Of a DNA stretch of 45,681 bases, positions 6,071 through 44,058 are shown in pieces; positions within the stretch are counted from its first letter, which is position 1; each line of letters starts with the position of its first letter. The stretch comes from Gemmataceae bacterium (GTDB lineage: Bacteria; Planctomycetota; Planctomycetia; Gemmatales; Gemmataceae). The stretch is from the NCBI GenBank assembly GCA_009697105.1, contig SIAQ01000030.1, positions 1-45,681 of the forward strand. The letters are read 5' to 3'. Position numbers and translations under genes: made by a program. The notes beneath the pieces are model-generated. The model was not told the origin of the DNA, searched no databases, and saw nothing but the letters and a program-made list of their open reading frames with translations.

Positions 6071-6107
6071 GGGTGAGAGAAATAACGCAGTCAAACAGGG
6101 AGCCACG

Positions 6108-6329: not shown

Positions 6330-6331
6330 CC

Positions 6332-6688: not shown

Positions 6689-6733
6689 CCTTGCCGACGA
6701 GAGAAATATTTGCCGGCAGAAAGAGAACATGAC

Positions 6734-7072: not shown

Positions 7073-7155
7073 AACTACGATTGCGGTGCGGAGATCTCGC
7101 CATCGCAGGACGAAGTCTGGGTTGTCGCGCATCCGATTCTGCGGCAAGATTGAGG

Positions 7156-7188
7156 TCCGCGCTCGCCGAAGGCGAGCGGCTAAACAAG
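7156..7188 (+). repeat. Palindromic element, family E (partial)
   Basis: An 8-bp stem (7160-7167 with 7171-7178, loop GAA) is followed by CGGCTAAACAA. The right arm of the element at 37942-38036 has the same layout and nearly the same bases (GGCGAGCGGCTAAACAA in both). Only that arm is recognisable here, so this may be a half element. It lies between the small unknown gene and the calcineurin-fold gene. Confidence 0.7.
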
Positions 7189-7210
7189 TCGGTTTGCCGA
7201 GGTTCCCACC

Positions 7211-7987: not shown

Positions 7988-8013
7988 CGCAATCAAATAT
8001 CGTGGAATTCCTT

Positions 8014-8043
8014 TTGCACTGTCACAATCGGATTGGCTATAAT
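8014..8043 (+). promoter_or_regulatory. Candidate sigma-70 promoter upstream of SUKH gene
   Basis: TTGCAC (8014-8019) and a perfect TATAAT (8038-8043) are 18 bases apart. They lie 188 bases before the TTG start of the SUKH gene, inside a 243-base gap with no other gene. This is the best consensus match I saw in the window. Confidence 0.5.
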
Positions 8044-8230
8044 AGACGGAGAGGAATCATTGAGGGCGCCCTGCAAGCGTTAAGACGGAAGCGGCACAGA
8101 TCGACGACAATTATATTTGGCGACAGTGAAAAAATGACCCCATTCCAAACCTGGCTACAATCCGATTCGCGTCGGTGGGCGCATTCGGTGAGGCTCGTTA
8201 CTACTCGGCCCCCCAACAAAGGCGAGTAAC

Positions 8231-12745: not shown

Positions 12746-12924
12746 CCTCGAAAAAAAAGCCCGTGAGATATCTCAAGCGCCCGGCCGACACACTTGCGTT
12801 TGACACCCTACATCCTGCCGACCCACCCCTCCCGCGCCCGCTTTTTCCATTTCCCCATGTCCCGCACTCGCCGCTTCCATAAATTGGTCCCTATTCTTTG
12901 CCGGCTTGGTTTTCGTCGCGGCCC

Positions 12925-12938
12925 GGAGGTGTTTCTTG
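12925..12938 (+). promoter_or_regulatory. Ribosome site deciding a TTG start (first paralog)
   Basis: GGAGGT at 12925-12930 is followed after 5 bases by TTG 12936. The two downstream paralogs have the same GGAGGT-TTG arrangement, and protein alignment of all three begins at this codon. The frame is open further back to a TTG at 12906, but that would place the GGAGGT inside the coding region. Confidence 0.8.
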
Positions 12939-17753: not shown

Positions 17754-17771
17754 CGGCGAGCTTGCTCGCCG
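17754..17771. repeat. Short hairpin before second paralog
   Basis: CGGCGAG and CTCGCCG (17754-17760, 17765-17771) pair around CTTG, flanked by ACATC..GATGT that adds imperfect pairing. It lies 30 bases before the TTG start of the second paralog and could affect its leader. Confidence 0.6.
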
Positions 17772-17789
17772 ATGTTAGTTGTTGTATGT

Positions 17790-17803
17790 GGAGGTGGCAC
17801 TTG
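17790..17803 (+). promoter_or_regulatory. Ribosome site deciding a TTG start (second paralog)
   Basis: GGAGGT at 17790-17795, 5 bases, then TTG 17801. The frame is open back to an ATG at 17762 (inside the hairpin flank) and another ATG at 17786, but the GGAGGT would then be coding, and the paralogs align from TTG (Met-Ala-Leu-Pro). Confidence 0.8.
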
Positions 17804-20800: not shown

Positions 20801-20941
20801 GGGGAGCAGATTTTGAACTCCACGGTGGAATGGTACAACCCCTACACCGATCACACCGACCGCGGGCAAAAGCGGCCGGTGACTAAGAATGATCCGGTTT
20901 GGACCGATGATTACTCGCATATCCTCAGCGTCTTGCGTTGA
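17801..20941 (+). CDS. Fused MFS-like membrane / spermidine synthase-fold protein, copy 2
   Basis: A 1046-residue paralog of the genes on either side, and the longest of the three. The membrane domain begins ALPIFAVTLFVSAFLLFLVQ and keeps MIGKLILPKLGGTPMVWNTC and the block CHGELAVDRPSPRYLTEFF. A Pro/Ala-rich loop (about 205-285) separates two membrane halves. The synthase fold has GLGTGTMASY near 749, YEIDEQ, GDARQSLD and DAFSSDAIPVHLVT near 866. The extra length compared with copy 1 lies in the late membrane part and a Lys-rich insert near 820-850. All sequence hallmarks of the family are intact, so it is probably active and not a decaying duplicate. It is closer in its first residues and motif wording to copy 3 than to copy 1. 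Confidence 0.9.
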   Translation: MALPIFAVTLFVSAFLLFLVQPMIGKLILPKLGGTPMVWNTCMVFFQSVLLLGYAYTHTISTRLKLRPQLMFHSVLLLLPIIMMSIFPFYSYVQDSFDPTTEGNPIVDTLICLAIVVGVPFFVVSTSAPLLQKWFAYSGEPAAKDPYFLYGASNLGSMLSLILYPFVIEPMTLLPTQTTIWFVGYIIFAAMVIFCAYKIYLIAPSDDAIAAVASAESSALAPVESEPIPAPAPVAPAQASTAVKSGDAPAKGGARRKAIKLPGQADTTPSIAEPMIRTPNVLSGATAPMTAWRRIRWVLLAMVPSSLMLGVTSYVSTDLSPFPLVWAIPLSLYLLSFILVFMQMWTQKRFPLVNPEGYTFHQITVYALHPLGLVALCFIVMKGGFDPFFATTIVMLGFFASAMACHGELAVDRPSPRYLTEFFLLMSVGGMLGGVFNSLIAPNLFETGVWEFHIAIVLAAMVRPQYVQSGWFDELVLSAFSGFKDWTVSQGDELAKSSGRPAPRSTYMFNYFLDVVLGLFVLALAYYLTTKYSARYRDTQDNTLRIMKFIGLPMTSKWLAITSNVLTIGIPAIFCFFYAGRPVRITIAIAGLLLGSLYFASRDDARETLESRRTYFGILRVMKDVEYVRDEEEVRHMTKGGVQDLAYPNSYLMHGTTHHGRNYFANTDDKLSKSRVDISRLATTYYHRYGPVGTVMEQWNWFPGEQNSYRGDVRLPASLIGQIAASICSSSLPVVPLVDMWSEPPFATIGLGTGTMASYARPYQHMTYYEIDEQIRQFSLPDEGREVRFSFLQGAVKRGVNLEVIMGDARQSLDPKREKSNLKNAFLYFADFSKEKPKIEPPITNKKFDANRYFPNRDHYYKAINVDAFSSDAIPVHLVTKQSIEIYMNKLTDDGVLMVHTSNRHMDLVRPVARIALELSEEHKAKGLPEINCLVGKDHGSSRYMGHFSSEYVMIFRGNGFKNLVDSMEKKREDFLAAKTMQAIPRGGRDEGTITGRAPAGEQILNSTVEWYNPYTDHTDRGQKRPVTKNDPVWTDDYSHILSVLR

Positions 20942-21140: not shown

Positions 21141-21206
21141 TAACCGTATGGCTAGTGTATACCCGGTCCCGGCGGCATAATATCTTACTTGCGCCCATTT
21201 TGTTCT

Positions 21207-21221
21207 GGAGGTTGTCCCTTG
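21207..21221 (+). promoter_or_regulatory. Ribosome site deciding a TTG start (third paralog)
   Basis: GGAGGT at 21207-21212, 6 bases, then TTG 21219. The protein then reads Met-Ala-Leu-Pro as in copy 2. The upstream open frame to 21189 would put the ribosome site inside the gene. Confidence 0.8.
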
Positions 21222-24191
21222 GCTCTGCCACTTTATGCTATCACGTTGTTCGTCAGCGCTTTCATTCTGTTCCTCGTGCAGCCGATCGTCGGCAAGATCA
21301 TCTTGCCGAAACTCGGTGGGACGCCCCAAGTGTGGAACACCTGCATGGTGTTCTTCCAAATGGTGCTCCTCGCTGGCTATGCTTACACGCATAACGCCAG
21401 TACACGACTCACGCTTCGGCAACAGCTGATGGCTCACGCTGTCCTGCTGATGTTGCCGTTTATCGTGCTGCTGCCGTTCCCGTTCGCGCTGGGCGGGGAG
21501 TTCCTGGCCGACGGCATGACGCCAAATCCGAGCAGTCTGTGGGGATTTGTGCCCGACCTGGGCAGCAACCCGATTCCGTCCACGCTGAGCGTGTTGTTCT
21601 TGTACGTCGCGTTGCCGTTCGTCGTAGTGGCGACGAGCGCGCCGCTGTTGCAAAAATGGTTCGTACACACGGGCCACCCGGCTGCGAAAGACCCGTATTT
21701 CCTTTACGGCGCCAGCAACTTCGGCAGCATGCTCTCGCTGATTGTGTATCCGACGCTGATCGAACCCAACGTATCGTTGAAAATGCAGGGATTCGTTTAC
21801 ATGTTCGGCTACCTCGCCTTGGTGGTTTGCGTCGTGGCGTGTGCCAGCATCGTGTGGCACAGCAAAGAGAAGCACCATACGCCCGAGCATAAGCCGCATC
21901 CCAAGCCCGATGCTGCTCCGTCCGCGCCAGCGGTAGCACCTGTCGCATCTGAGACCGGCATTACAGCGACTACGCCTGCTGTCACCGGCGTGAAGTCCGG
22001 GCAGCCGAAGCAACCGGCCAAATCGGGCGGCGTGAAGCCAATGCCGACCCACGATTCGCCGATCGCGCTCGGTGCCGACGATCTTACGCCGGGTCGCCGT
22101 TTCCGTTGGGTCATGCTGGCGGCGATTCCGTCAAGTTTGATGTTGGGCATCACAACCCACATCACGACCGATCTTTCGCCGATCCCGCTCTTTTGGCTCA
22201 TTCCTCTGATCCTGTATCTCTTGTCGTTCATCCTCGTCTTCGCCAAATGGCCTGTGGTTTGGACCGAGGAACCGCACAAATACGTCCTCTACGCCCAACC
22301 GTTCTGCGTGGCGTTGATGATTATCGTAGACGTGTTCAACCTCTTCCACAGCACGCAGGCGATCCTGTTTGCGATCATCGCCCACGTACTCGGATTCTTC
22401 GCCACGACGATGATGTGTCACGGCGAGATGGCCAAGGATCGGCCTAGCACGCGCCATTTGACCGAGTTCTTTCTGTGGATGTCGGTCGGCGGCATGGTCG
22501 GCGGCATGTTCAACGCCCTCATCGCCCCCGTTGTCTTTCCGAAAACCTGGGAGTTCCCGCTGGCGATCTTTGCGGCGGTCATCATCCGCCCCAAGATGCT
22601 CGACAGCGGCTTCCTCGACCCGTTCTTCGCCAGCCTGTTTGAAGGCCAACCCAATACGGTCCGACCGGCGGGCATAGGTCACAAGCCGCTTCCGGTGCAT
22701 GGCGGCCTGGTCGTTCCCAACGAGAACACCACGAAGAACCTCGACCTCGCTTGGGCCGTCGGCATCCTGGTGCTCACGGTCGTCCTGGCGATGATCTTCG
22801 ACAGCGCCCGCGGTTCGTCGCCCCAAGGCAAGCTCATCGCTTACGGCTTGCCGTTGGCTCTGGCGTGCATGCATTTCTCGCGTCCCTTGCGCGTCGGGCT
22901 TGGCATCGGCTTCGTGTTGCTCGTCAACACTGTCTTGACGTCCCTCAACGATGAAGCATCACGCTATTCCAGCCGAAGCTATTTCGGCACGATCGCCGTC
23001 AAGGAGTCGCGAATGGCGAAGGATAAAGATGGCAAAATCGTCCTGAATTTCCATCGGCTGATTCATGGCCACATCGACCACGGCATGAACTTCCTGCGCC
23101 CGGCGAACAAGAGCGATTTCGATCGCCCGGACAAGGATTACAGCCGATTGGCGACAACGTACTATCACCGCGAAGGCCCAGCCGGGCGCGTGATGGAAAA
23201 GTTCAACTGGTTCCCCGGCGCGCCGAACACCTTTGATGCCGACGCGCGCCTGCCGGTATCATTGATTGGCTCGATCGCTGCCGATATCGCCAGCGCCATG
23301 CTGCCGACGACGGCTTTGGTGACGGCCTGGTCCGAACCGCCGATAGCGACGATTGGACTCGGCACGGGCACGATGGCGTCGTACGGGCGTGTCTACCAGC
23401 ACGTCCACTTCTACGAGATCGACGACCAGATTCGCCGGCTTTCCTTGCTAACTCCGACTCGGCTTTGCGGCAGCCATGACGACTACGTCAAGGCCAAGCA
23501 GAGTGTGCCGGGCCGACAACAAACCTATTTCAATTACCTGGAAAGCGCCCTCCAGCGTGGCTCGAGCGTGCAGGTCATGATGGGCGACGCCCGCCTTCGC
23601 ATGGCCTTGCCGTACAAGAACCATTACCTTGACGAAAAGGAACGTGGCGGCGGCCCCGAAGGCTTCTACCACATGATGGTCGTCGACGCGTTCAGCTCGG
23701 ATGCGATCCCGGCTCACTTGCTCACCAAGCAAGCATTCCAAATGTACTTCGACAAGCTCACCACGAAGGGTATTCTCTGCGTGCATACGTCCAATCGGTT
23801 TGTTGATTTGCCGAAAGTCGTGTCGGCACTTTCCGCAGATGGTATCTATGTCGAAACCGTGGACGCGAATGGCAAGAAAGTGAAAAAGATCGAGAAGCTC
23901 TCGCATTTCCGCGGGCACGACTCCAACGACGAGCGCAGCAATGGCCACTACACTTCGGAATGGGTGATGGTTGCACGCGAACATGATTATTTGGATACGG
24001 GCCGAGTGAGCAAGGGAAATTTCGGACTGGTTTCTCTCCAAAGCGATTCTAAATTCCTCGATGATTATGCCAAAGGATTGCAGGAGGGCAACAAACGCCA
24101 GGAGGAATATTGGACAACCATCACATCTGATGGTCGTTATGTTTGGACCGATGACTACTACAACATCCTCTCGGTCGTTCGCTTCCGTTGA
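21219..24191 (+). CDS. Fused MFS-like membrane / spermidine synthase-fold protein, copy 3
   Basis: A 990-residue paralog. It begins ALPLYAITLFVSAFILFLVQ, PIVGKIILPKLGGTPQVWNT, and keeps CHGEMAKDRPSTRHLTEFF. A His/Pro/Ala-rich loop lies between the membrane halves (about 215-285, with HHTPEHKPHPKPD). The synthase fold shows GLGTGTMASYGR near 713, FYEIDDQIRRL, MMGDARLRMALPYK and DAFSSDAIPAHLLT near 823. The end VWTDDYYNILSVVRF matches copy 2 (VWTDDYSHILSVLR), and copy 1 has VWTDGYSNMLNPSV, so the C-terminus is conserved. A strong terminator follows 20 bases after the stop, closing the array. Confidence 0.9.
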   Translation: MALPLYAITLFVSAFILFLVQPIVGKIILPKLGGTPQVWNTCMVFFQMVLLAGYAYTHNASTRLTLRQQLMAHAVLLMLPFIVLLPFPFALGGEFLADGMTPNPSSLWGFVPDLGSNPIPSTLSVLFLYVALPFVVVATSAPLLQKWFVHTGHPAAKDPYFLYGASNFGSMLSLIVYPTLIEPNVSLKMQGFVYMFGYLALVVCVVACASIVWHSKEKHHTPEHKPHPKPDAAPSAPAVAPVASETGITATTPAVTGVKSGQPKQPAKSGGVKPMPTHDSPIALGADDLTPGRRFRWVMLAAIPSSLMLGITTHITTDLSPIPLFWLIPLILYLLSFILVFAKWPVVWTEEPHKYVLYAQPFCVALMIIVDVFNLFHSTQAILFAIIAHVLGFFATTMMCHGEMAKDRPSTRHLTEFFLWMSVGGMVGGMFNALIAPVVFPKTWEFPLAIFAAVIIRPKMLDSGFLDPFFASLFEGQPNTVRPAGIGHKPLPVHGGLVVPNENTTKNLDLAWAVGILVLTVVLAMIFDSARGSSPQGKLIAYGLPLALACMHFSRPLRVGLGIGFVLLVNTVLTSLNDEASRYSSRSYFGTIAVKESRMAKDKDGKIVLNFHRLIHGHIDHGMNFLRPANKSDFDRPDKDYSRLATTYYHREGPAGRVMEKFNWFPGAPNTFDADARLPVSLIGSIAADIASAMLPTTALVTAWSEPPIATIGLGTGTMASYGRVYQHVHFYEIDDQIRRLSLLTPTRLCGSHDDYVKAKQSVPGRQQTYFNYLESALQRGSSVQVMMGDARLRMALPYKNHYLDEKERGGGPEGFYHMMVVDAFSSDAIPAHLLTKQAFQMYFDKLTTKGILCVHTSNRFVDLPKVVSALSADGIYVETVDANGKKVKKIEKLSHFRGHDSNDERSNGHYTSEWVMVAREHDYLDTGRVSKGNFGLVSLQSDSKFLDDYAKGLQEGNKRQEEYWTTITSDGRYVWTDDYYNILSVVRFR

Positions 24192-30633: not shown

Positions 30634-33600
30634 CTACGAGCGCAGTCCCGGCAGCGACTGAATCCATTCCGCACTCGGCAAAGCGTAGGGCCGAAATTTC
30701 TCGATGCGGCCTTGATCCTCGGTAAAGTACAGCGCCCGTTGCGGACCAAGTTTGGCGGCGATCGGCGAGTCCATCAGCGTGCTCGAATCCGCAGCGCTCA
30801 TCTGCATCATGACCCGCTGATCGAACTCGCGCATCGTCGGGCGGTCGATCATGCGTTGCAGATTGACGAGCGTGTCGCACCAGAGCAGCGTGAATACGCC
30901 GACCGGCGGGCCTTCCTTCAAGACATGCGTGAATTGCCGATAGGGCGTTTTGTCTTCGCCCTTTTTCGAGAAGCCGAAGTCGTCATCCGGTTTGCGCAGG
31001 TCGCGCAGCCGTTGCAAGCCGTACAGGAACAGGAAACGCGGCGGACCGCCAAGCTGACTTCGGCGATCGATCTCAGCCGCCAACTGATTCAATAACGCAC
31101 CCAACTCACGCAGAGGCCACAGGCGGATAGGTAAAGTATCGGTCAGAGTTTTCACCAGCTCTTCCGAAGCGGCATCCAGCGCCTGCCCGATGACGAGATC
31201 GACACATGGCTCCGCGCTGAGTGCGCTCAGGCTTATCAGACTCGAAACGGTCAGGCCGATGGCGAGATCTTCTTGCTGGCCGAGAATGAGCAGATTCGAG
31301 CCGCTTTGCTTGCGAAAGACGGCTGCGGTCGGATCCTTGATGGCGATCGCGTCGCCAAGCCAGGCGCTCGACGTAGTCCCTGACGGCTCGGCGGATTTCC
31401 AGCGTTCGATCAACAAGTGATTCGTCGCGAGATCGGCAGGGATAGCGCCTTCAAAGACGATCGGCTTCCGCACCGGCCAACTGGGAGAGACCATCGCGTG
31501 AACCTGCGTCAATAGTTCGTCGCGTTTGTTGTCGCCGAGCCAAACGACCTGGAACATGTGGTTGCCTTCGAGCATGCCGTGCATGGCGTTGTAAATGCCT
31601 TCGCCAGGCCGAGACAGCAAACGCGCCTCGGTGTTATCCCGGCTCAAGATCAGGTGGGCGTCGGCTTCACTGCATTGCAGGGCGATGCGCACCGCCATCT
31701 GGTCGATGGTGCTCCGCGCCAGACTGTACGCCCCGCCGATCGTTTGGGAGCCGAGCAGTACATGGATGCCGAACGCTCGGCCTTGACGCACGAGCCGATC
31801 CATCAGCAACGACGATTCACCGGCGATCTTGTCGTCCTCGATGAAGAACTCCTGGAATTCGTCAACGATCAGCATGACGCGCGGTAAGTACGGCACCTCG
31901 GGATGACTCTTCGCATGTTCGCGATAAGTCGCCAGGTCGTTGACGCCGGCCGAGCGATAGATTTCACCGCGTTTGCTCAGTTCGCCGTCGAGTTTCTGCA
32001 ACACGCTCAGGCCGAACTCGCGTTCGCTTTCGACGGCGATGACCTTGGCATGCGGCAGGTCGAACGAGGCGTATGCCTTGAACTCGACGCCTTTCTTGAA
32101 GTCGATGAGATAGAGTTCGATTTCGCGCGGGCTGTAGAACATGGCGAGCTGTGAGATGAGCACATGCAGCAGCGTCGATTTGCCCGATCCGGTCTTGCCG
32201 GCGACGAGCACATGCTGCGACGTGCCGAGACCGAGTTCGAGGTATTGCTTGCCCTGGGCGCCGAAGCGTCCGATCGGCACGCGGATGCCATTGGCCGTAT
32301 CGCCATGCCACCAGGTGTCGCGCACGGGCATGATCCACTCAAACGGGACCTCGACTTTGCTGGAGCGCACCGCCTCGTCGCCGACCTGTTTGAGCAACTC
32401 GGTGCAGCGCGCGGGTTCGGGGGACGTGGACAGCGTGAGCGGGTATTCGCCGAAATCGGTGTCTTCCCAGAGAAAGCGGTCTTTCTCCCAGTACAGGCAG
32501 GTGCAGACTTTTTCCAGATCGGCGAGGTTGAACCCGTGCGGCATCGGTTGCTTGAGATCGACCATGACGAACGTGTAGATGCCACACCGCGCGCCGGCGC
32601 TGGCGAGACTGACCAGGCGCCGGGCGGCATCCTCGCTGAAGTTGACCGGGAAATGCGCGATCACCAGAAAATGAAACGGCTCGGCGACTTCGCCTGCCTG
32701 GGCGTTGTACTCAGCCAGCGTTTCGTATTCATTGCGCAGATACTTTTGCAGCACGTTCTCCATGTGCAGCGTGAGGTTGGAGAGCCGTTCGTCAACCTGG
32801 GAGAGTTCGGTCCAGATGCGGTAGTCGATCAGTTTTTCATCGTGATCGGCAAGGTGCATGAACGCCGAGAAATTCTCACCGCGACCGACGGGGTCGATAA
32901 TCGTGGCGCGGACTTTGCCCGCGGGCATGGCAGTCCAGCAATGCAGGAGCAGGGCTTGCAACGCATCGATGGCGAGTTGCCTGGCTTCTCCGTGGGTGCG
33001 ATAGAGAACCGATGCACGCTGCGGAAACGGCAACAGCGCGGGATACGTCGCCTTGGAGAGATCGGGGCGTGGAAGCTGCGGATCGCTCGGCACGCCGCCG
33101 GGAAACATGTCGAGCGTCCAATGCATCTGCCCGATCGGCAGGCCCATCGGCAGCGCTTTGGGCAGGGTCAGTGGTTTGTCCCATGGGGGGAACCATTGCT
33201 CGCAATCGCGGGCCACCGCTTTGCAAGTTTGGAGGAAGCCGTCGCAGGCCTGTTTCCAATCGCGCAGCAAGGCGGTCCACTGCTGCGTATGCCATTGATG
33301 ATTTGCTTCGCGTTTTTGGCGGTATTCGTTCTCGACGAATTTGCAATCGGCGTCATACTGTTGCGACGCCTGGCGTTGGTCTTTTTCCAGCGATTCGTCA
33401 ATCGTGGCGGCTTCCTTGGGCTGTTGCTCGCCCTGTACAGCGTAGCGTTTCTTGAAGGTGCGTTCGATCGCGTGCAGCGCTTTGTCGCGTTTTTCACGCA
33501 GCTCTTCCAGGCTGGCACGCGTTTTTTCGGTCATCGTCCGCTGCAGGTCGCGGTTGCGTTGGAGGCTCTGGCGTTTCTTCGTGAGATATTTTTTCTTCGC

Positions 33601-34491
33601 GCGCTGGTAGCAAATCGGACGCAGCTTCCGCGCGAGATGGGCAGACTCACGCAGCGAAAACCACAACGACAGGATGCGGTCGTTCGTTCGGCTACGCATG
33701 CGGTTGATCATGGCGTTGCCGATCGGCAACATGATCGCCGGCGCGGCGATGACAATGAGCCAATACGGGATTAAATGCCCGACGAAAAAAATCGCACCAA
33801 GGATGCTCGGCGCCGTGATCACCAGCCAGACTGCGACGAGAATCAACCACGGCAGCCAACCGTTGATGAAGCGGGGGCTGCGCATCGTTTGCAGGGCATC
33901 CACGTCGGCGGCGGCGCGATCGGCGCATTGCTGGATCTGTACGAATGGATCACCTGCACCGATATGAATCGCTTTCACGTCGAGCGCGGGAATGTCGTCA
34001 AGAAACTCAAGGTTGTCGATGATCGTGCGGCCGCCGCGCCAGTGGACTAACAGCTTTCGCAATAGTTCCCTGCACGAGGCCATCGCTTCGAGCATCTGTT
34101 CTTTGGCGACGCGTTTGTCGGCTTCATAGACTGCGCCGGTCGTCCAGCGTGCTTCGCGGAACTCGGCTTCCAGCGCCTCTTTCGCCTCGCGATATTCGGC
34201 AAGATGCGCCTCCCGCGCGGCTTCGTGCTCCTGCCGAAGCTCCTCGCGCTCCCGTTCCTGGCGTTCGAGAATCTGTCGACGATTCATCTCGACGCGATTG
34301 ATGGCATCACTTTGGGCGGCGGCGTGTACACTGTCGGCCTTTTGCTTCCTGGCCGCATGATGTTGCTCGTTTGCACGGGTGCGCGATTGCTCCTCGCTGG
34401 CGATCTCCGTCTCTCGGCGCGCGCGATCCGTGATCGCCAGACGAAACGCCAGCAAGGCCTGACGTTGTTGTTCACACCATAACTGGGTCAT
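30634..34491 (-). CDS. FtsK/EccC-like membrane ATPase of an ESX-like module
   Basis: A 1285-residue protein. Residues about 1-150 are a charged coiled coil (RQEREREELRQEHEAAREAH). Two membrane helices lie at about 208-254 (WLILVAVWLVITAPSILGAI, then LIVIAAPAIMLPIGNAMI). A second coiled coil follows (about 285-420). Residues about 500-680 look like a degenerate FtsK-type domain (ATIIDPVGRGENFSAFMHL) with no P-loop. The active domain has Walker A GKTGSGKST at 765-773 and Walker B LIVDEFQEFF with D877, plus LYLIDFKKGVEFKAYA. The C-terminal third resembles a further inactive domain. Tandem FtsK domains behind a membrane anchor are the plan of EccC, the motor of type VII secretion. It is the last gene after three small helical genes, two with WXG-like motifs. 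A DNA-pumping role is less likely given these neighbours. Confidence 0.88.
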   Translation of the reverse strand: MTQLWCEQQRQALLAFRLAITDRARRETEIASEEQSRTRANEQHHAARKQKADSVHAAAQSDAINRVEMNRRQILERQEREREELRQEHEAAREAHLAEYREAKEALEAEFREARWTTGAVYEADKRVAKEQMLEAMASCRELLRKLLVHWRGGRTIIDNLEFLDDIPALDVKAIHIGAGDPFVQIQQCADRAAADVDALQTMRSPRFINGWLPWLILVAVWLVITAPSILGAIFFVGHLIPYWLIVIAAPAIMLPIGNAMINRMRSRTNDRILSLWFSLRESAHLARKLRPICYQRAKKKYLTKKRQSLQRNRDLQRTMTEKTRASLEELREKRDKALHAIERTFKKRYAVQGEQQPKEAATIDESLEKDQRQASQQYDADCKFVENEYRQKREANHQWHTQQWTALLRDWKQACDGFLQTCKAVARDCEQWFPPWDKPLTLPKALPMGLPIGQMHWTLDMFPGGVPSDPQLPRPDLSKATYPALLPFPQRASVLYRTHGEARQLAIDALQALLLHCWTAMPAGKVRATIIDPVGRGENFSAFMHLADHDEKLIDYRIWTELSQVDERLSNLTLHMENVLQKYLRNEYETLAEYNAQAGEVAEPFHFLVIAHFPVNFSEDAARRLVSLASAGARCGIYTFVMVDLKQPMPHGFNLADLEKVCTCLYWEKDRFLWEDTDFGEYPLTLSTSPEPARCTELLKQVGDEAVRSSKVEVPFEWIMPVRDTWWHGDTANGIRVPIGRFGAQGKQYLELGLGTSQHVLVAGKTGSGKSTLLHVLISQLAMFYSPREIELYLIDFKKGVEFKAYASFDLPHAKVIAVESEREFGLSVLQKLDGELSKRGEIYRSAGVNDLATYREHAKSHPEVPYLPRVMLIVDEFQEFFIEDDKIAGESSLLMDRLVRQGRAFGIHVLLGSQTIGGAYSLARSTIDQMAVRIALQCSEADAHLILSRDNTEARLLSRPGEGIYNAMHGMLEGNHMFQVVWLGDNKRDELLTQVHAMVSPSWPVRKPIVFEGAIPADLATNHLLIERWKSAEPSGTTSSAWLGDAIAIKDPTAAVFRKQSGSNLLILGQQEDLAIGLTVSSLISLSALSAEPCVDLVIGQALDAASEELVKTLTDTLPIRLWPLRELGALLNQLAAEIDRRSQLGGPPRFLFLYGLQRLRDLRKPDDDFGFSKKGEDKTPYRQFTHVLKEGPPVGVFTLLWCDTLVNLQRMIDRPTMREFDQRVMMQMSAADSSTLMDSPIAAKLGPQRALYFTEDQGRIEKFRPYALPSAEWIQSLPGLRS

Positions 34492-34515
34492 GAATTCATC
34501 TCGTGGGGCCTGGAG

Positions 34516-34619
34516 GCTATCGGCATGTAGGGTGTGTCAAGCGCCAGCGCCGACGCACCGGTTCTTGCAGGGGCAGGTGCGTCGGCGCTGGCGCTTGACA
34601 CACCCTACATGCTGATAGC
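34516..34619. repeat. 44-bp-arm palindrome inside the ESX-like operon
   Basis: Arms 34516-34559 and 34576-34619 pair over 44 bases with a single wobble (36 of them perfectly from 34524), around a 16-base loop. The arm contains GTGTGTCAAGCGCCAGCGCC. It fills the 135-base gap between the 74-residue gene and the ATPase gene. It is the longest hairpin in the window and could strongly reduce read-through or stabilise the upstream mRNA. Confidence 0.96.
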
Positions 34620-34626
34620 TGATAGC

Positions 34627-34851
34627 TCACTCCCGTTCCGTACCGCATTCGCTGCGCATCTTGGCAACTTCGAGTTCCAGCCGATCGGTCGCTGACAGGA
34701 TGGACGCCAGGCGTGCTTCGAGCGGCTCCCAATGGTGGTCGTTGTAGTCCTTGCGAACGATGTCACGCCAAACGCCCTCGGTCGAATCCCATTCCTGCTT
34801 CAACGATTTGAAGGCGTTGGCCAACTGATATCTTCCTGCGGATAGACTCAT
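34627..34851 (-). CDS. Small helical protein with WXG-like W-R-D motif
   Basis: A 74-residue, mostly helical protein. Its ATG overlaps the stop of the 163-residue gene as ATGA (34851-34848), so translation is coupled. The middle reads STEGVWRDIVRKDYNDHHW; the segment W-R-D-x4-D-Y lines up with W-R-D-x4-K-F of the 90-residue WXG100-like protein encoded upstream. Trp flanked by two helices is the hallmark of WXG100 proteins, though this one is short and has Asp where Gly is usual. It may be a partner forming a heterodimer with the 90-residue protein. This is inferred from one motif; it could also be an unrelated chaperone-like helix pair. Confidence 0.75.
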   Translation of the reverse strand: MSLSAGRYQLANAFKSLKQEWDSTEGVWRDIVRKDYNDHHWEPLEARLASILSATDRLELEVAKMRSECGTERE

Positions 34852-35339
34852 GGAGTTCCTCCTGGACCGGCGATGCGCTGATATTCTTCGAGCGCGGCGA
34901 GTTTATGTTCCAAAAAAGCGACGGCCTTGACCATGTCGGTTTCGAGCGCGTCCTGGAATGGCCGGGCCTTGCCATCGTAGGCCTCGACAGCGTCGGGAAG
35001 GCGGATTGCCCAGGCCTTGACGTTGTCGCGTTTGTCCTCGGCGAAAGCCAGGCGTGCCTTGGCGCGGCGAAGGTCCTTCTCTTGCTCGGTGGTGTCGATG
35101 GGCCGATCGCCGACGCGCAGCATTTTTCGTCGAGCCAATTCGCGTTTGGCGTGAAAGACATCGTCCTCGGCGCGGATGATCTCCGCTTTCCAGGTGAGCA
35201 TCTGTTGCTGCAACCAATCGTGTTCGCGGCGGATGGACAGGGCGTTGGCGCTCATCGCCGATTTTGCCTTGTCGATAAAAATCTGCACCGCCGCCTTGAA
35301 CTGTTCGAGGCGATCCAGCGAGTGTACTTTCGCGGACAT
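34848..35339 (-). CDS. Coiled-coil protein of the ESX-like module
   Basis: A 163-residue, highly charged helical protein. ATG 35339 is preceded by GGAG; the open frame upstream starts with TTG in the hairpin flank and is rejected. It contains long heptad-like stretches (EIIRAEDDVFHAKRELARRK, then EQEKDLRRAKARLAFAEDKR) and no signal peptide or membrane helix. I do not recognise a named family. Its position between two WXG-like genes and its ATGA overlap with the next gene make it part of the same system. It might be a secreted long helical substrate (LXG- or EspB-like) or a cytoplasmic chaperone; sequence alone cannot decide. Confidence 0.8.
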   Translation of the reverse strand: MSAKVHSLDRLEQFKAAVQIFIDKAKSAMSANALSIRREHDWLQQQMLTWKAEIIRAEDDVFHAKRELARRKMLRVGDRPIDTTEQEKDLRRAKARLAFAEDKRDNVKAWAIRLPDAVEAYDGKARPFQDALETDMVKAVAFLEHKLAALEEYQRIAGPGGTP

Positions 35340-35355
35340 GGTGAGGGTCTCCAAA

Positions 35356-35409
35356 CCGCTTGCGGCTTAGCGCTCGCGTCGCAAGTTCCGAGCGCTAAGC
35401 CGCAAGCGG
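35356..35409. repeat. Palindromic element, family A
   Basis: Perfect 21-bp arms (35356-35376, 35389-35409) around a 12-base loop; the arm is CCGCTTGCGGCTTAGCGCTC then G. It nearly fills the gap between the WXG100-like gene and the coiled-coil gene and ends 16 bases before the latter's start. It matches the element at 17605-17662. Confidence 0.95.
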
Positions 35410-35419
35410 GAACCTGCAA

Positions 35420-35692
35420 TCAATGCTGTTGCAAGTACTCTTCGATCCGTTCCGCTTTGCGCTGGAGGAACGGCACGTGCATGTCGGCGACTTCGAGAAA
35501 GTGCTCGATCACATGCAGCGTTTGCTCGAATTCCTGCGTGAACTTGTCGTGCTCCTGATCGCGCCAGGTGTCGGAGAGCCGCGTTATCTCGGCGTGCAGG
35601 CCGGACACGCGTTCGCGCAGATCGCCGTTGAACTGTTTGAGATGATGGGCAAAACGCCGGAGTTCCAGGGGATCGACAATCGCTTGAGCCAT
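35420..35692 (-). CDS. WXG100-like protein (type VII secretion target family)
   Basis: A 90-residue, all-helical protein of ESAT-6/WXG100 size. The central turn is SDTW43RD45QEHDKF, with Asp instead of the usual Gly after W-x, flanked by two amphipathic helices. The C-terminal helix contains a Y/F-x3-D/E-like arrangement loosely (FEQTLHVIEHFLE). WXG100 proteins are exported as dimers by EccC-type ATPases, and such an ATPase is encoded three genes downstream. ATG 35692 has AAGGTG 5 bases upstream and is directly preceded by a family C palindrome. It is the first gene of the minus-strand cluster. The assignment rests on length, helical pattern, the Trp turn and context. Confidence 0.85.
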   Translation of the reverse strand: MAQAIVDPLELRRFAHHLKQFNGDLRERVSGLHAEITRLSDTWRDQEHDKFTQEFEQTLHVIEHFLEVADMHVPFLQRKAERIEEYLQQH

Positions 35693-39363: not shown

Positions 39364-42300
39364 TTAGTTCGCGCCCGGAATCACGGACAGGTTAACGGCC
39401 GGGCGGTTGGTGCGATTGGCACCGTCGAAGAATGGCCGGATGACCATTTCCATGCTGCGGCGATCGTCGCTGACGCGGAGTTGGGTGGTCATTTGGAGGC
39501 CGCCCATGCCGCTTGGGTTGACGACGTTCTGGGCAACGATGACGCCGGACTTGTTCTTGCTATCGCGGGCGGCCAGGGCCTCGACGCTGGGGATGCGTGA
39601 ACCGCCTGGCGTGCTCATGCCGCCGCGAGGGCCGCGGGCACCGTAGAAGTTGGGATTGGCAACGGAGCGAAGGGCGTTGAAAGCATTGCCGGCCTTTTCG
39701 TTGTCGTTCTTGGCCGAATGGCGTTTCTGGGCGGCCGGCGAAACGAGCGAGAGCTCGGTGCGTCGCCCGTCCTTGAGCGAAATCTTGATCGGTGCGTTGT
39801 CGGTCAGAGTGATGATCTTCATTTGCGTCGACTGGTTCGGCATCCCCGCGTTCTGGGTGATGATGAGCCGAGCGCGATTACTGAGAACCTGGCCATAGAC
39901 GCGCGAGACGGTGATTTCGTACTCGCCGGGAAGGGCCTGGGCGACGACGTATTGGCAGTTGGGTTCTTTGTCCAGGAGGTTATAGCCGATCATGATGCCG
40001 CCGCCTGGAGTTTGCGGTTGGTCCCATGAGGCAACGCTGCCGCAGGGTTCCTTGACGCGGAGATCCAGCTCGGCCGGTCCGCCGACGGAATCCCAGACAA
40101 GCTGGACGACGAGGTCACGCTGATTGAGTCGGGCCAGCGCGGATTCCAGCGACTTGGCCTCGCCGTCGCGTTTTTCGGATTTCAGCGTGCTGGCAAGCGA
40201 GTTGAGTCGCTTGCGAGCGAGTTGATGGAGAAGCGTGTTGTCAACAGGCCAATCCTGGCTGACGAGGTTGCCGACGGCCCATTCCATGGCGTTGGCGTCC
40301 TTGGCCTTCTCCGCGCAGGCGAGCGCGAATTCGTAGGCGTGGTAATCGGTCGGTTCGAGCTGGGCGGCGTGCCGACAGAAGGCGATGGCCCGATCGTGTT
40401 CACCGCGATCGGACACAGCGCGGGCAGCACTGAGGAAGCCTTGAGCGTCATTCGGGTCGAGGGCGATTCCCGACATGCGGACGCGGCGGATTTCCTCGGG
40501 ATCGCCGCCGGACATTTCCAGTGCGATGGCGAGCGATTCAAAGACCCACGGACGAACGACAACGGAGTGTCGCAGGTTCGCCTTGAGGAACTCGGCTGCG
40601 TGCTTGAATTCGCCTGCTTCAAAAAGAAAATCGGCAGTGGCGATGACGTGGCCGGGCTGTATGCCGGGCTTGGCGAGAGCGTCATGCCAAATCTTGTTCG
40701 GATCGAGGTTGGCGCCTTTGTTGATGCCGGTTTTGTCGTTCTTGGCGATCTCCATGCCGGCGGCGACTTTGAGCACGGGTGCTTTTTTGCCTTCGAGTTT
40801 GGCGAAGATTCGGTCGCGCATTTCTTCGTTAAGGAAGACGGCGGCACCTGCTTTCTTCGCCCCGCCTCCTCCGAAGATACCGCCTGTGATGGAGGTGTGA
40901 ATTCGGGAGGGCGCACGCACGAGAAGCGCCTGGGTCGGTGCGAAATAATCGATCGAATTTTTCTCGGGGTTGATCGTGGCATTGGGGTCCGCTCCGGGCG
41001 GCATGGCGCCGACCATCGCCATACCAGGAAGCATGCCCATGGCCATCATGCCGGGGAAGCCGGGCATCATCATCGGAAAACCCATCATCATGCCGGGCAT
41101 CATGGGCATCATGGCCATGACGCTGGCGGCATTGGGAGCGTTCCAGTTGCCAGGATCGACGATGCGGGTCAGGATGTCGATGAGGGGGAGCGCTTCAAAC
41201 ATTTGTTGTCCGCCCATGATACCACCCATACCGCCGCCCATCATGCCTGGCATACCACCCATCATACCGCCGCCCATCATGCCTGGCATACCACCCATCA
41301 TACCGCCGCCCATCATGCCGGGCATACCACCCATCATGCCGGGCATACCACCCATCATACCGCCGCCCATCATGCCGGGCATACCACCCATCATGCCGCC
41401 GCCCATCATGCCGGGCATACCACCCATCATGCCGCCGCCGCCGCCGCCGCCGGAGGTACTGAACTGTTGAATCAGATCGGCAACAGGATAGACGCGCACT
41501 ACTTTGTCGGCGACATAGGCGTCAACGGTCGTGATTTCGATGTAGCTTCGGCGAATGAGATAGGTCGCTTTGCCTTTGGCGACTTGCGACAGCATCATTT
41601 TGAACGCGAGATTCAGCGTGATTTCACCGGGAATGTCCGGAAGGGCAACTTCCTCGTCGTAAACGCTGCCTTCCGCGCCGGCCTCGGCGGCGAATGCTCG
41701 TTCGTCCACGAGGATCGGTGTCTTCTTGAGATACTTGGTCGAAAGCAGATCGAGCGCGTCCTTGAGTTTTTCTTTGCCTGGGAGTATCTTTTTGGGGATT
41801 TCCGATTGCTGCAATAAATCGTAAATACGCGACGCTTCCTGCCGACCTTTGTCGTCATCGAGGAAGAAACTGCCGACTTCGTATTTTCCCTTGCGTGATT
41901 CGGTGATCGCTTTCCAGGTCTTCAACGGCGGAAAGTGCATGGCCGGCTCATCGGGGAATGGCACATGCGATTTTTCGACTTCGAGCAGCACGGCGAGCCA
42001 TTTTTCTTCGCGTTTGCGGATCATCTGGTGATGCAGTTGTAGCGGATAGGCTGCCAGGGCGATGTCGTAAAACGCCTTGGACGCGACCGGCACGCGCTGA
42101 CCTTTGCGACGTGCCTCGTCCTGGATATCGACCATGGCGTTGACGATATTCATGCGTGTGCGTTCGTCGAAACGGGCCTGGATCATCTGGTTCTTGTAAA
42201 GGCGGAATTGCTGATCGACGCGATCTTCCCAGGTCTTGCGTTCTTGTTCGCGCGTCAAATTCGCCTGAGCGACGGCGATGGCCTTGTTCTGGTCGTCTTT

Positions 42301-44058
42301 CTTGAGCCGAGATCGCATCACTTCCGTTGCCGAGTCGCGTAGCGCGTTTTCCAGGCGATTGGACAACCCGTCGCGAATTTGTGCCCCAAGGTCGGGGTGG
42401 CTCTTGACGCGCTCTTTGAGGAGCTTTAGAGCTTCCAGCGTGCCATCGGGGTCGTTGGTCAGGGTCTTGCGGGCTTGTCGAATGGTGTCGTCAACGAGCT
42501 GGTTTATTTTCTGTTCTTCGACGGCCTGGCGTTCGCGGTGTTCGCGAATGAGGTTTTCCGGTGCGAGGGCGGGTTGCTTCGGTTCCGGAAATTTGGGAGC
42601 GTTTTTGGCTTCGTCTTGAGCGAGTTCCAGAAGGTTTACGTTGACCCATTGCTGCTTGCCTTCGACGACTTTGAACATCTTGCCGTTGCCCGCGCGGTTA
42701 TCGAGTTGCTTTTTGAGCATGTCGCGCGTCAGCGTGCCGTCTTTCAAGCGATCGACGACGCGAATACCTGCCTCGGCCTGTGGATCGTGCGGAGCGAGTT
42801 GCCGAGCTTGCTGAAAGAATCGGCCTGCGGCTTCGATTTTGTTGTCGGAGAGCGCCAATTCGGCGCTTTCGATGCACTCCAGGTGCTGCAAGCGGGTCTG
42901 TTCGTAGGCGAAGGCCAAGGCGCGGTCGGCACGCAAAATGGCTGGGTTCTCGCGGGCCTTGGCCCATTGCTCGGCCATGGTCGCGATGAAGTAATGGTCG
43001 AGGCTGGGGGGCTGGACTTTTTCGCTCGCCCTGACCGTCACATCGCCCTTGCGGCCTTGGATGGCGCCGGTGATCGTGTAGTCGATCTGCTTCGGCAGTT
43101 TCTTGAATTGGCCAACGAGCAGCGTCGGCACCTCGCTGCGTAATGGCGGCAGGACGCTCGGGCAGATGTCGGTCGCGTCAGCGGGGAGATCGATCTTGGC
43201 GGAGTAAAGGATCGAGCCGGCGAAGGTCTCGTGATAGCGTTTGATCGTGTCGGTTACTTTTTCCGTGCCGACGTCGGTGCGCAACACCATGCCGCCGGTG
43301 CTGTTGGCCAAGCCGTGGAGGGTTTTCGGGTCAACCTGAATGCCGAGCGGGACCGGGAAGAAGGCGATGCGGCGTTCGACCATTTGTTTCGCCAAGGTGA
43401 CGCGGTCGCCGTCGGACATTGGGTTGTGCGTGCTCAGGCCGTCACCCAGGAACAGGATGATGCGTCGGCGATCCTTGGAGCTGTCGAACGTCTTGATCGC
43501 CTCGGCCAGGGCGTTCTTGAGATCGGTGTTGCCCGAAGGATATTCCTTCTCGCGATACTGCTTCAACGCATCGCGAAGGCGTTTGTTTTCGCCATAATCC
43601 TTGGTCAACAGGAAGTCTTTGGTCAGGTTCTTCGTGAATTTCGGCTCGTTGACGGTCCAGAGCGACACGCGGTCGAATTCGCGGGCACCGTCCATGATCC
43701 CTTCCGCGAGTTGATGGGCAGCGACCCAGCTGGCACCGGCCTGCGTGGCGGCGGTGGACAGCATAATTAAGTAATCGCGCGGCTGATCCGGCGACTTCTC
43801 CAGCTGCGGCTTCATTTGCAGCGCGAAATATCCGTCGCCTTTTATCCCTTGATAGGTAACGACGCCAGGCACGCCGAATCGGCCCGTACTTGCCGGTTCG
43901 TAGGCACGCAAGTTCGCTGGTTCGGCCTGCGCGACGGCCTGCGCAGTCGTTATCGCCGTGTCCGCCTTCTTGCCTGCCTGACCGTGCAAGTGTGTGGAGA
44001 TGAAGGTAACGAGACCCATCATGGCGGCAAGCGCCAAAAGACGACGCACTTTTTTCAT
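39364..44058 (-). CDS. Giant secreted VWA protein with Met-Gly repeat
   Basis: A 1564-residue exported protein. A signal peptide covers about 1-27 (LALAAMMGLVTFISTHLHG). A von Willebrand A-like domain lies at about 90-270, with RRRIILFLGDGLST and LHGLANSTGGMV; the first metal motif D-x-S-x-S is missing (LIMLSTAATQ), so metal binding is doubtful. A long charged helical part follows (about 340-700). A domain like those before secretins, PDIPGEITLNLAFKMMLSQV, ends near 868. A Met-Gly-Pro repeat spans about 870-945. Helical TPR-like repeats (about 1170-1290) and a DUF2135/YfaP-like beta domain near 1320-1400 (GGPAELDLRVKEPCGSVASW) finish it. GAGAGG precedes ATG 44058. It probably works as a surface or periplasmic scaffold; its partner is unknown. 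Confidence 0.85.
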   Translation of the reverse strand: MKKVRRLLALAAMMGLVTFISTHLHGQAGKKADTAITTAQAVAQAEPANLRAYEPASTGRFGVPGVVTYQGIKGDGYFALQMKPQLEKSPDQPRDYLIMLSTAATQAGASWVAAHQLAEGIMDGAREFDRVSLWTVNEPKFTKNLTKDFLLTKDYGENKRLRDALKQYREKEYPSGNTDLKNALAEAIKTFDSSKDRRRIILFLGDGLSTHNPMSDGDRVTLAKQMVERRIAFFPVPLGIQVDPKTLHGLANSTGGMVLRTDVGTEKVTDTIKRYHETFAGSILYSAKIDLPADATDICPSVLPPLRSEVPTLLVGQFKKLPKQIDYTITGAIQGRKGDVTVRASEKVQPPSLDHYFIATMAEQWAKARENPAILRADRALAFAYEQTRLQHLECIESAELALSDNKIEAAGRFFQQARQLAPHDPQAEAGIRVVDRLKDGTLTRDMLKKQLDNRAGNGKMFKVVEGKQQWVNVNLLELAQDEAKNAPKFPEPKQPALAPENLIREHRERQAVEEQKINQLVDDTIRQARKTLTNDPDGTLEALKLLKERVKSHPDLGAQIRDGLSNRLENALRDSATEVMRSRLKKDDQNKAIAVAQANLTREQERKTWEDRVDQQFRLYKNQMIQARFDERTRMNIVNAMVDIQDEARRKGQRVPVASKAFYDIALAAYPLQLHHQMIRKREEKWLAVLLEVEKSHVPFPDEPAMHFPPLKTWKAITESRKGKYEVGSFFLDDDKGRQEASRIYDLLQQSEIPKKILPGKEKLKDALDLLSTKYLKKTPILVDERAFAAEAGAEGSVYDEEVALPDIPGEITLNLAFKMMLSQVAKGKATYLIRRSYIEITTVDAYVADKVVRVYPVADLIQQFSTSGGGGGGGMMGGMPGMMGGGMMGGMPGMMGGGMMGGMPGMMGGMPGMMGGGMMGGMPGMMGGGMMGGMPGMMGGGMGGIMGGQQMFEALPLIDILTRIVDPGNWNAPNAASVMAMMPMMPGMMMGFPMMMPGFPGMMAMGMLPGMAMVGAMPPGADPNATINPEKNSIDYFAPTQALLVRAPSRIHTSITGGIFGGGGAKKAGAAVFLNEEMRDRIFAKLEGKKAPVLKVAAGMEIAKNDKTGINKGANLDPNKIWHDALAKPGIQPGHVIATADFLFEAGEFKHAAEFLKANLRHSVVVRPWVFESLAIALEMSGGDPEEIRRVRMSGIALDPNDAQGFLSAARAVSDRGEHDRAIAFCRHAAQLEPTDYHAYEFALACAEKAKDANAMEWAVGNLVSQDWPVDNTLLHQLARKRLNSLASTLKSEKRDGEAKSLESALARLNQRDLVVQLVWDSVGGPAELDLRVKEPCGSVASWDQPQTPGGGIMIGYNLLDKEPNCQYVVAQALPGEYEITVSRVYGQVLSNRARLIITQNAGMPNQSTQMKIITLTDNAPIKISLKDGRRTELSLVSPAAQKRHSAKNDNEKAGNAFNALRSVANPNFYGARGPRGGMSTPGGSRIPSVEALAARDSKNKSGVIVAQNVVNPSGMGGLQMTTQLRVSDDRRSMEMVIRPFFDGANRTNRPAVNLSVIPGAN
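41227..41450 (-). repeat. 36-bp minisatellite coding for Met-Gly-Pro repeat
   Basis: Inside the VWA gene a 36-base unit (plus strand ATACCGCCGCCCATCATGCC onward) recurs about five times, with one short 21-base unit and a terminal GCC run. Units encode 12 residues of type GGMPGMMGGGMM; the length of every unit is a multiple of 3, so the frame is kept. Further Met/Pro/Gly-rich but irregular sequence follows to about 40990. Confidence 0.93.

What the first reader, a model, noticed from the sequence alone, without database searches (positions are those of the whole stretch)
30634..35692. Minimal ESX/type VII-like secretion module in a planctomycete
Four minus-strand genes form a unit: a 90-residue WXG100-like protein, a 163-residue coiled-coil protein, a 74-residue protein also carrying W-R-D, and a 1285-residue two-TM ATPase with one good P-loop (GKTGSGKST, D877 in Walker B) between two domains that look inactive. 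No EccB, EccD, EccE, mycosin, EsaA or YukD homolog is nearby. WXG100 proteins and EccC-type motors are the known core of type VII systems; a double-membrane bacterium would need something else to cross the outer membrane. This may be an undescribed, stripped-down or diverged version.
Basis: partly seen in the sequence, partly recalled or inferred. Interest (0 to 1): 0.75.

Follow-up and report, generated by a model that had tools for sequence, protein, structure and literature searches.

The report
Planctomycete minimal WXG100 membrane-motor operon
Four neighbouring planctomycete genes encode two small helical proteins, one long helical-hairpin protein and a membrane-anchored ATP motor related to type VII secretion engines; the same cassette occurs widely in planctomycetes and verrucomicrobia, so it is a real, little-described branch of a known kind of machine whose job is untested.

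Summary
Minus-strand genes A (WXG100, 90 aa), B (163 aa), C (74 aa) and D (1285-aa ATPase) form one unit. D has two TM segments and one active ATPase domain between two without P-loop; its C-terminal model matches EccC best. A's closest solved relative is H. pylori HP0062. B is predicted as one long helical hairpin. Of 60 named D-bearing contigs with room upstream, 50 carry A-B-C-D in order, mostly Planctomycetota and Verrucomicrobiota MAGs.

D is neither a DNA pump nor inside the sampled EccC/EssC clade. It groups with 'WXG100 + FtsK' modules of TerY-P/CoCoNuT-like islands and Helicobacter, a published kind of minimal type VII-like system. New here: the PVC-wide branch, its fixed B and C partners, its membrane anchor, and signs that B carries swappable C-terminal domains elsewhere (Imm33-like; another shared by a Chloroflexota MAG and a Rhodococcus plasmid) but none in this window. 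YukD and EssB were not found in the genome; the YxxxD/E export motif is missing from A and C. Most likely an inner-membrane ATPase that moves or switches the A-B-C complex; export is inferred.

The parts
35420..35692 (-). Gene A: 90-aa WXG100 protein with W-R-D at the hinge
   Evidence: Pfam WXG100 32.8 bits; 19 of 19 aligned members hit WXG100 at E <= 0.01; best PDB match HP0062, 3fx7, E 6.7e-11; exactly one match in each of the 70 A-bearing genomes of 95
34848..35339 (-). Gene B: 163-aa protein, predicted as one long antiparallel helical hairpin (helices 6-73 and 84-157), without a C-terminal passenger domain here
   Evidence: AlphaFold2 mean pLDDT 94.1; no Pfam or NCBIfam match at E <= 1; present in 38 of 40 family neighbourhoods
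34627..34851 (-). Gene C: 74-aa protein with invariant W-x-D, probably a WXG100-like partner; its start codon overlaps B's stop
   Evidence: alignment A3: W28 and D30 invariant in 29 of 29; 4 of 29 members weakly hit WXG100, best E 0.0025; weak single-pass and strong iterated cross-match with A
30634..34491 (-). Gene D: 1285-aa FtsK/EccC-like ATPase with two predicted transmembrane segments
   Evidence: PF01580 99.9 bits; EccCa 117.5 bits vs FtsK (PRK10263) 18.9 bits, both below the curated cut-offs
33697..33876 (-). D residues 206-265: two transmembrane segments between charged, Pro/Gly-poor (helical, coiled-coil-like) stretches 1-205 and 266-440
   Evidence: hydropathy: at least two such segments in 58 of 68 named sequences that keep the N-terminus; composition
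32410..33042 (-). D1: ATPase-like domain without P-loop (residues 484-694)
   Evidence: matches D3 by hhalign, probability 95.5%; its profile clearly hits only the TerY/TerD/Helicobacter-type ATPases among 14 proteins
31540..32337 (-). D2: FtsK-type ATPase domain with intact motifs (residues 719-984; Walker A from G765, Walker B D877)
30670..31482 (-). D3: ATPase-like domain without P-loop (residues 1004-1274)
   Evidence: matches D2 by hhalign, probability 96.7%; the model of residues 440-1285 matches EccC 4nh0

Best explanation
A stand-alone minimal WXG100-FtsK module of the diderm kind. Shown by sequence or prediction: the four-gene unit, its conservation and single copy, the WXG100 identity of A, the long hairpin of B (predicted), the EccC-like ATPase array of D with one intact site, the conserved TM pair, and the kinship of D with TerY-P/CoCoNuT-like and Helicobacter WXG100-FtsK ATPases. 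Inferred: D forms a hexameric ring at the inner membrane (as EccC and FtsK do); A and C form a WXG100-type helical bundle, alone or with B's hairpin; this A-B-C complex is the dedicated partner and substrate of D; ATP hydrolysis in D2 moves it, or part of it, across the inner membrane, B being the carrier to which variable C-terminal domains are fused in other lineages. In the window's lineage B has no passenger, so either the complex itself is the product or it carries something unrelated in sequence. How anything would cross the outer membrane is unknown; the operon offers no candidate.
For: A. D. A-B-C-D in order in 50 of 60 named contigs and all four genes in 37 of 40 family neighbourhoods. 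Co-occurrence of A and D: 69 both, 6 D only, 1 A only, 19 neither, of 95 genomes (p). B in 12 of 12 tested genomes, once in 11 and with one weak extra match (E 0.003) in the twelfth; C once in 12 of 12. Passengers on B: Imm33-like; a second domain shared by L163 (Chloroflexota MAG) and L100 (Rhodococcus plasmid), E 7e-19. Membrane anchor.
Against: No export data. The T7SS motif YxxxD/E is absent from the last 30 residues of A (0 of 19) and C (0 of 29) and rare in B (4 of 47). YukD and EssB not found. No toxin or immunity gene was recognised beside the module in the window, and the profiles found no second A, B or C protein in the own genome that could be another substrate. The outside relatives sit in defence-like islands, and the CoCoNuT ones were described as lacking TM segments, so D's clade may have an intracellular job. 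Foldseek found nothing specific for B (no match at E <= 0.001). In 7 of 60 contigs D stands without A, B and C nearby; in 12 of the 69 family genomes with both, A and D lie on different contigs, mostly with D at a contig end but not in G001 and G093; in G116 B and C lie far from D.
Confidence: 0.5

Rival explanations
1. Intracellular defence or stress module: the motor and its WXG100 partners work inside the cell, as the TerY-P/CoCoNuT-associated relatives may, on nucleic acid or as a signalling switch, with B's C-terminal domain (a nuclease elsewhere) as effector; the PVC version is tethered to the membrane.
For: Closest outside relatives lie next to CARF nuclease, VWA-PP2C-kinase and AAA genes (Caballeronia), TerD genes (Rhodococcus), or a WHH/colicin-DNase protein with a SUKH gene (Helicobacter); PMC11090510 places such operons in CoCoNuTs.
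Against: No such partner family recurs at a fixed place beside the PVC module; kinase/WD40-type ORFs occur within the fetched stretch in 16 of 40 family loci but at varied positions and on both strands. The TM pair is conserved. In closed genomes such as G052 and G071 the unit lies on the multi-megabase contig. PADLOC gave only SspH/HerA/mads-type ATPase matches to D and none to A, B or C.
Confidence: 0.27
2. DNA translocase: D is a second FtsK-type DNA pump and the small proteins are accessories.
For: FtsK/SpoIIIE fold of D2; Foldseek also matches FtsK, E 1.3e-15.
Against: The genome has its own FtsK elsewhere (C126, 201 bits); D scores 117 bits to EccCa against 19 to FtsK; best structural match is EccC over its ATPase array, E 8.6e-31; D2 falls outside the FtsK rows; WXG100 neighbour.
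Confidence: 0.06
3. A true type VII secretion system (T7SSa/b or c-j) whose other membrane parts lie elsewhere in the genome.
For: WXG100 plus EccC/EssC-like motor with two TM segments.
Against: D2 groups with the TerY-type proteins (95/97 support), apart from the EccC/EssC first ATPase domains (98/99), with long outgroup branches; YukD and EssB not found; YukD found in 1 of 21 genomes of the own group and relatives, among ubiquitin-pathway-like genes.
Confidence: 0.1

Closest known systems
H. pylori HP0062-HP0066 'WXG100 secretion system' (PMC4978471, PMC3397514; passages read)
   Same: WXG100 protein with W-R-D at the hinge clustered with an FtsK/SpoIIIE ATPase in a diderm; HP0062 is the best solved match of A
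   Different: PMC4978471 lists DnaK-like and HNH/ENDO VII nuclease genes in that cluster; neither is beside the window module, which has fixed B and C partners and a TM pair
EssC-like/WXG100 extension of Type III-A CoCoNuTs and TerY-P islands (PMC11090510, passages read; Anantharaman 2012 not seen)
   Same: three ATPase domains with only the middle one predicted active, N-terminal coiled coil, two WXG100-type proteins, one coiled-coil protein; stand-alone copies are mentioned there, citing Anantharaman 2012
   Different: [quoted passage not shown] here a TM pair and no nuclease
T7SSa/T7SSb and T7SSc-j (PMC11217815; outline, introduction, first part of Results and passages read)
   Same: WXG100 protein and membrane-bound multi-domain FtsK-type motor
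   Different: YukD and EssB not found; motor outside the sampled EccC/EssC clade; that survey is of Bacillota and Actinomycetota
Bacterial FtsK
   Same: D2 fold and Walker motifs
   Different: flanking domains without P-loop, WXG100 partners, separate FtsK in the same genome

Membership tests
WXG100 superfamily (gene A) | profile match and kinship to a helical hairpin with W-x-G at the hinge | tested here: met
   Pfam over cut-off; HP0062 structure as relative; A itself was not folded; the motif is W-R-D in 18 and W-K-D in 1 of 19, not W-x-G
WXG100 superfamily (gene C) | profile match | tested here: inconclusive
   no Pfam match for the window protein; 4 of 29 members weakly hit; direct hhalign with A gave 1.8% probability; link to A weak in one pass, strong only by iterated profiles; C was not folded
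Type VII secretion system (T7SSa/T7SSb) | motor inside the EccC/EssC clade | tested here: not met
   tree of ATPase domains; 3 EccC/EssC proteins sampled, long branches
Type VII secretion system (T7SSa/T7SSb) | YukD/EsaB-like component and EssB (T7SSb) | tested here: not met
   PF08817 and PF10140 not found in the own genome (91.9% complete); control rings in B. subtilis
Type VII secretion system (T7SSa/T7SSb) | EccB | tested here: inconclusive
   no match, but no control genome rang
Type VII secretion system (T7SSa/T7SSb) | EccD, EccE, mycosin; EssA, EsaA | not tested
   not searched genome-wide; none among the window ORFs scanned with Pfam
Type VII secretion system (T7SSa/T7SSb) | C-terminal YxxxD/E export motif on a substrate | tested here: not met
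   last 30 residues: A 0 of 19, C 0 of 29, B 4 of 47; motif recalled and seen in a search-listing abstract (PMC5311947)
Type VII secretion system (T7SSa/T7SSb) | demonstrated ATP-driven export of WXG100 proteins | not testable with these tools
   needs an experiment
TerY-P/CoCoNuT-type WXG100-FtsK module | three ATPase domains, only the central one with Walker motifs | tested here: met
TerY-P/CoCoNuT-type WXG100-FtsK module | shared motor clade | tested here: met
   5 plasmid proteins sampled, of which only Caballeronia lies beside VWA-PP2C-kinase genes
TerY-P/CoCoNuT-type WXG100-FtsK module | motor without transmembrane segments | tested here: not met
   TM pair in the window protein and at least two such segments in 58 of 68 relatives; 6 have one and 4 none
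TerY-P/CoCoNuT-type WXG100-FtsK module | neighbouring TerY-P triad or nuclease-fused coiled coil | tested here: not met
   window ORFs (a VWA-like gene lies 3.7 kb away, below cut-off); no conserved neighbour in 40 + 80 loci
FtsK/HerA DNA pumps | motor grouping with FtsK | tested here: not met

The most novel reading that the evidence does not exclude
A phylum-old, chromosomally fixed branch of WXG100-FtsK machines in PVC bacteria in which a toxin-delivery module has been domesticated: the B carrier has lost (or traded for Imm33-like) its passenger, the motor has a membrane anchor, and the A-B-C-D unit now does a housekeeping task at the inner membrane of a diderm cell, for example export or surface display of the A-B-C complex, with no known type VII membrane partner.
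Probability: 0.3. Interest if true: 0.72.

Novelty: new variant of a known kind. Interest (0 to 1): 0.52.

Why it matters
Type VII-like machinery is studied mostly in Gram-positive bacteria and mycobacteria. A four-gene unit conserved across planctomycetes and verrucomicrobia would be among the smallest WXG100 machines known, apparently without the EccB/D/E or EssA/B/EsaA parts, in a double-membrane cell. It makes the question 'what do WXG100 proteins and a motor do on their own?' directly testable, and it links secretion engines with phage-defence islands.

Tried and rejected
FtsK DNA pump: rejected on scores, tree and the separate FtsK. Classical T7SS: not supported. Extra subunits in the neighbourhood: in the 40 family loci the commonest clean family beside the module was in 11 (an oxidoreductase by eye); 17 further ORFs in 16 loci had been lumped with D by loose clustering and on re-check form a loose group at varied positions and on both strands; of these I identified two, a kinase (L053) and a WD40 protein (L058). 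In the 80 named loci no other family was in more than 6. Further substrates with A-, B- or C-like domains: none found in the own genome. B as an LXG domain by fold: Foldseek gave only generic coiled coils, none at E <= 0.001. YukD in relatives: the one hit of 21 (G423) lies among genes that read as ubiquitin-like, E2-like and E1-like proteins (by eye), with no A, C or D2 match and only marginal B and D ones (E about 0.01 or worse). VIA-align was not available.

Weak points of my own links. hhalign of the A, B and C family alignments against each other gave 1.8% probability or less, so A-C kinship rests on iterated searches; hits, also those of the plasmid loci, were added to the profiles at each round, so its E-values for these loci are flattered (first-round matches at E < 1e-4: A 56, B 55, C 58, D 89). 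With profiles not containing them, A finds the Helicobacter (4.5e-17), Rhodococcus AH-ZY2 (9e-15) and Deinococcus (6e-9) small proteins, and B finds the Rhodococcus 314-aa protein (6.8e-6); Caballeronia 436-aa 0.003, Deinococcus 326-aa 0.17 and Helicobacter 340-aa 3 are not convincing (all among 16 sequences). So the B role of the last three rests on gene order and size. In R. pseudokoreensis (L103) no A, B or C was found at E < 0.01.

Papers: PMC11217815 outline, section 4, part 1 of section 6, and passages; PMC11090510, PMC4978471, PMC3397514, PMC6471051, PMC3935865, PMC1779556, PMC3796261, PMC4631099 passages only; PMC5311947 abstract start in a listing; Sutcliffe 2011 and Anantharaman 2012 not seen (known only through citing papers; the latter is not held). 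Searches combining WXG100 with planctomycetes, verrucomicrobia, diderms or TerY listed no paper on this PVC module; several listings were capped and subscription papers are mostly missing from the library.
Full report
1. The observation. A (90 aa) passes the curated WXG100 cut-off. C (74 aa) and B (163 aa from ATG 35339; scanned in the 168-aa reading) have no Pfam or NCBIfam match at E <= 1. D (1285 aa) scores 117.5 bits to EccCa, 90.7 to EccCb, 87.4 to EssC and 18.9 to FtsK PRK10263; none reaches the curated cut-off of its model, so D is a distant relative, not an EccC or EssC. The own genome holds one WXG100 match and a separate FtsK on another contig.

2. Conservation. D occurs in 75 of 95 genomes of the family at E <= 1e-20 and in 67 of 392 genomes drawn across the phylum at E <= 1e-30. 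In 40 fetched family neighbourhoods A was found in 37, B in 38, C in 38 and D in 40, all four in 37, drawn in the order A-B-C-D or, where long overlapping readings blur the starts, next to each other. Two loci without A, B and C (L036, L045) have D near a contig end; L039 lacks A, which that genome (G093) has on another contig. In 27 more distant loci with about 1.5 kb of flank, A matched at E < 1e-15 in 16, B at E < 1e-5 in 22 and C at E < 1e-9 in 24; L076, L081 and L092 had none. Of the 60 with at least 1900 nt upstream of D, 50 have A, B and C in order on the same strand (12 of 14 Verrucomicrobiota; the Chloroflexota one too); 7 have none of the three and 3 are partial. Titles are those of the records and most are MAGs, so single odd placements (Bacteroidetes, Kuenenia, Akkermansia) may be binning or naming errors.

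3. One copy each. With a profile of A, 70 of 95 family genomes have exactly one match and none has two. Joint presence with D: 69 both, 6 D only, 1 A only, 19 neither (tallied); Fisher p 7e-14, ignoring relatedness. In 57 of the 69 A and D share a contig; in 12 they do not, mostly with D at a contig end, but D is internal in G001 and G093. B: one match in 11 of 12 genomes tested, the twelfth with an extra match at E 0.003 inside a 2143-codon frame. C: one in 12 of 12. In G116 B and C lie about 1.6 Mb from D. So no further substrates built on these domains are visible.

4. Anatomy of D. Residues 1-205 and 266-440 are charged and poor in Pro/Gly, which I read as helical coiled coils; between them lie two hydrophobic segments. 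At least two such segments occur in 58 of 68 named sequences that retain the N-terminus (6 have one, 4 none). D1 and D3 lack a P-loop; hhalign links D1-D3 (95.5%) and D2-D3 (96.7%), not D1-D2. The model of residues 440-1285 (mean pLDDT 85.6) matches the EccC cytoplasmic domain best (4nh0, E 8.6e-31), then EccC and EssC fragments, then FtsK (1.3e-15). TM-scores to EccC are modest (about 0.4), so the domain arrangement differs or is uncertain.

5. Where D belongs. Among 14 proteins, a profile of D1 finds the plasmid proteins of Rhodococcus sp. AH-ZY2 (1e-37), Caballeronia (8e-32), Deinococcus (1e-21), Helicobacter NHP19-012 (1e-15) and R. pseudokoreensis (3e-13), while a Hymenobacter protein is at 3e-4 and FtsK, EccC and EssC at 0.01 or worse. 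The D2 profile gives 174-283 bits to that group, 132-165 to EccC/EssC summed over several domains (73-93 for the best single domain), and 59-83 to the FtsK-type rows. The tree of ATPase domains puts the 14 PVC rows and the 5 plasmid rows together (95/97), apart from the three EccC/EssC first ATPase domains (98/99) and from FtsK-type rows; the 5 plasmid rows are not a supported group of their own, the deeper order is unresolved, and several outgroup branches are long.

6. Partners. A's closest solved relative is HP0062 (3fx7 and 2gts, E 6.7e-11 and 1.5e-10), before EsxB and EsxA entries. PMC3397514 (passages) describes HP0062 as a dimeric hairpin with W-R-D at the bend, in a cluster with an FtsK/SpoIIIE protein. 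A has W-R-D in 18 and W-K-D in 1 of 19 rows. C has invariant W28 and D30 in 29 rows; its profile has no convincing PDB match (best E 0.007, an apolipophorin). A and C profiles meet weakly in one pass (E down to about 0.002) and strongly after iteration. B is predicted with high confidence (pLDDT 94.1) as two helices of about 70 residues packed side by side; Foldseek finds only generic coiled coils.

7. Passengers on B. In nine PVC loci that I looked at B runs to 327-375 aa (some readings run in from the locus end). Six of these pass the Pfam cut-off for Imm33-like in the C-terminal part (L115, L149, L083, L085, L075, L080), L150 is just below it, and L148 and L159 have no match. Other Phycisphaerales loci have a short B (e.g. 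L128). L163 (Caldilineaceae) and L100 (Rhodococcus) share another C-terminal domain, 36% identity over 117 residues, E 7e-19; I read it as ParB-like from its motif, Pfam ParB_N being only E 0.08. In the Helicobacter plasmid the gene after A ends in a WHH/colicin-DNase domain and is followed by a SUKH-type gene, an arrangement typical of toxin and immunity pairs; its N-terminal part does not match the B profile, so the equation with B is by position. In the window B ends with the hairpin.

8. Mechanism. The strict four-gene unit, one intact ATPase site between two without P-loop, a membrane anchor and WXG100-type partners fit a motor dedicated to its own A-B-C complex. EccC and FtsK relatives work as hexamers. 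Export across the inner membrane is the best-supported reading by kinship, but against it stand the missing YxxxD/E motif, the missing T7SS partners and the defence-like setting of outside relatives. I give it 0.5, an intracellular role 0.27. Nothing here tells how a substrate would pass the outer membrane.

9. Known or new. WXG100 + FtsK as a minimal type VII-like set in diderms is in print, and stand-alone copies are mentioned there through Anantharaman 2012, which I could not see. PMC6471051, citing Sutcliffe 2011, names Cyanobacteria, Lentisphaerae, Proteobacteria and Verrucomicrobiae as having WXG100 proteins. My searches listed no paper on the planctomycete or PVC operon; subscription papers could hold one. 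The branch, the fixed B and C partners, the TM pair and the passenger swaps are what this adds: a new variant of a known kind.

Noticed in passing
window 39364-44058 (-): 1564-aa protein with a VWA-like region (VWA_3 and VWA_2 just under their Pfam cut-offs), about 3.7 kb upstream of gene A.
   Followed up: no
window 12906-15902, 17762-20941 and 21189-24191 (+): Three ORFs of about 1000 aa with no Pfam match at E <= 1e-5; the first and third, which I translated, read as related multi-pass membrane proteins with a C-terminal spermidine-synthase-like part (by eye).
   Followed up: partly
L115, L149, L083, L085, L075, L080 (B gene): Imm33-like domain fused to the B hairpin: an immunity-type domain carried by the supposed cargo protein.
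   Followed up: partly
L163:1848-2843 and L100:11417-12361: The same C-terminal domain (36% identity) sits on B-type proteins of a Chloroflexota MAG and a Rhodococcus plasmid typed as conjugative.
   Followed up: partly
L105:9131-13533: Helicobacter (cat) plasmid with WXG100-like, WHH/colicin-DNase, SUKH-type, 77-aa and FtsK genes in a row.
   Followed up: partly
L100:7456-11424: TerD domain at the N-terminus of the same kind of ATPase.
   Followed up: no
L210 (G423 contig C256) 2139-4621: YukD-like protein next to genes that read as E2-like and E1-like proteins (by eye) in a planctomycete: looks like a bacterial ubiquitin-like operon.
   Followed up: partly
G116 (D at C1:5919306-5923031, B at C1:4299135-4299617): B and C lie about 1.6 Mb from D, so the unit can split.
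   Followed up: partly
L149:5020-8943: D is read as two adjacent frames (5020-6921 and 7144-8943) in a Phycisphaerae MAG; split gene or assembly error.
   Followed up: no
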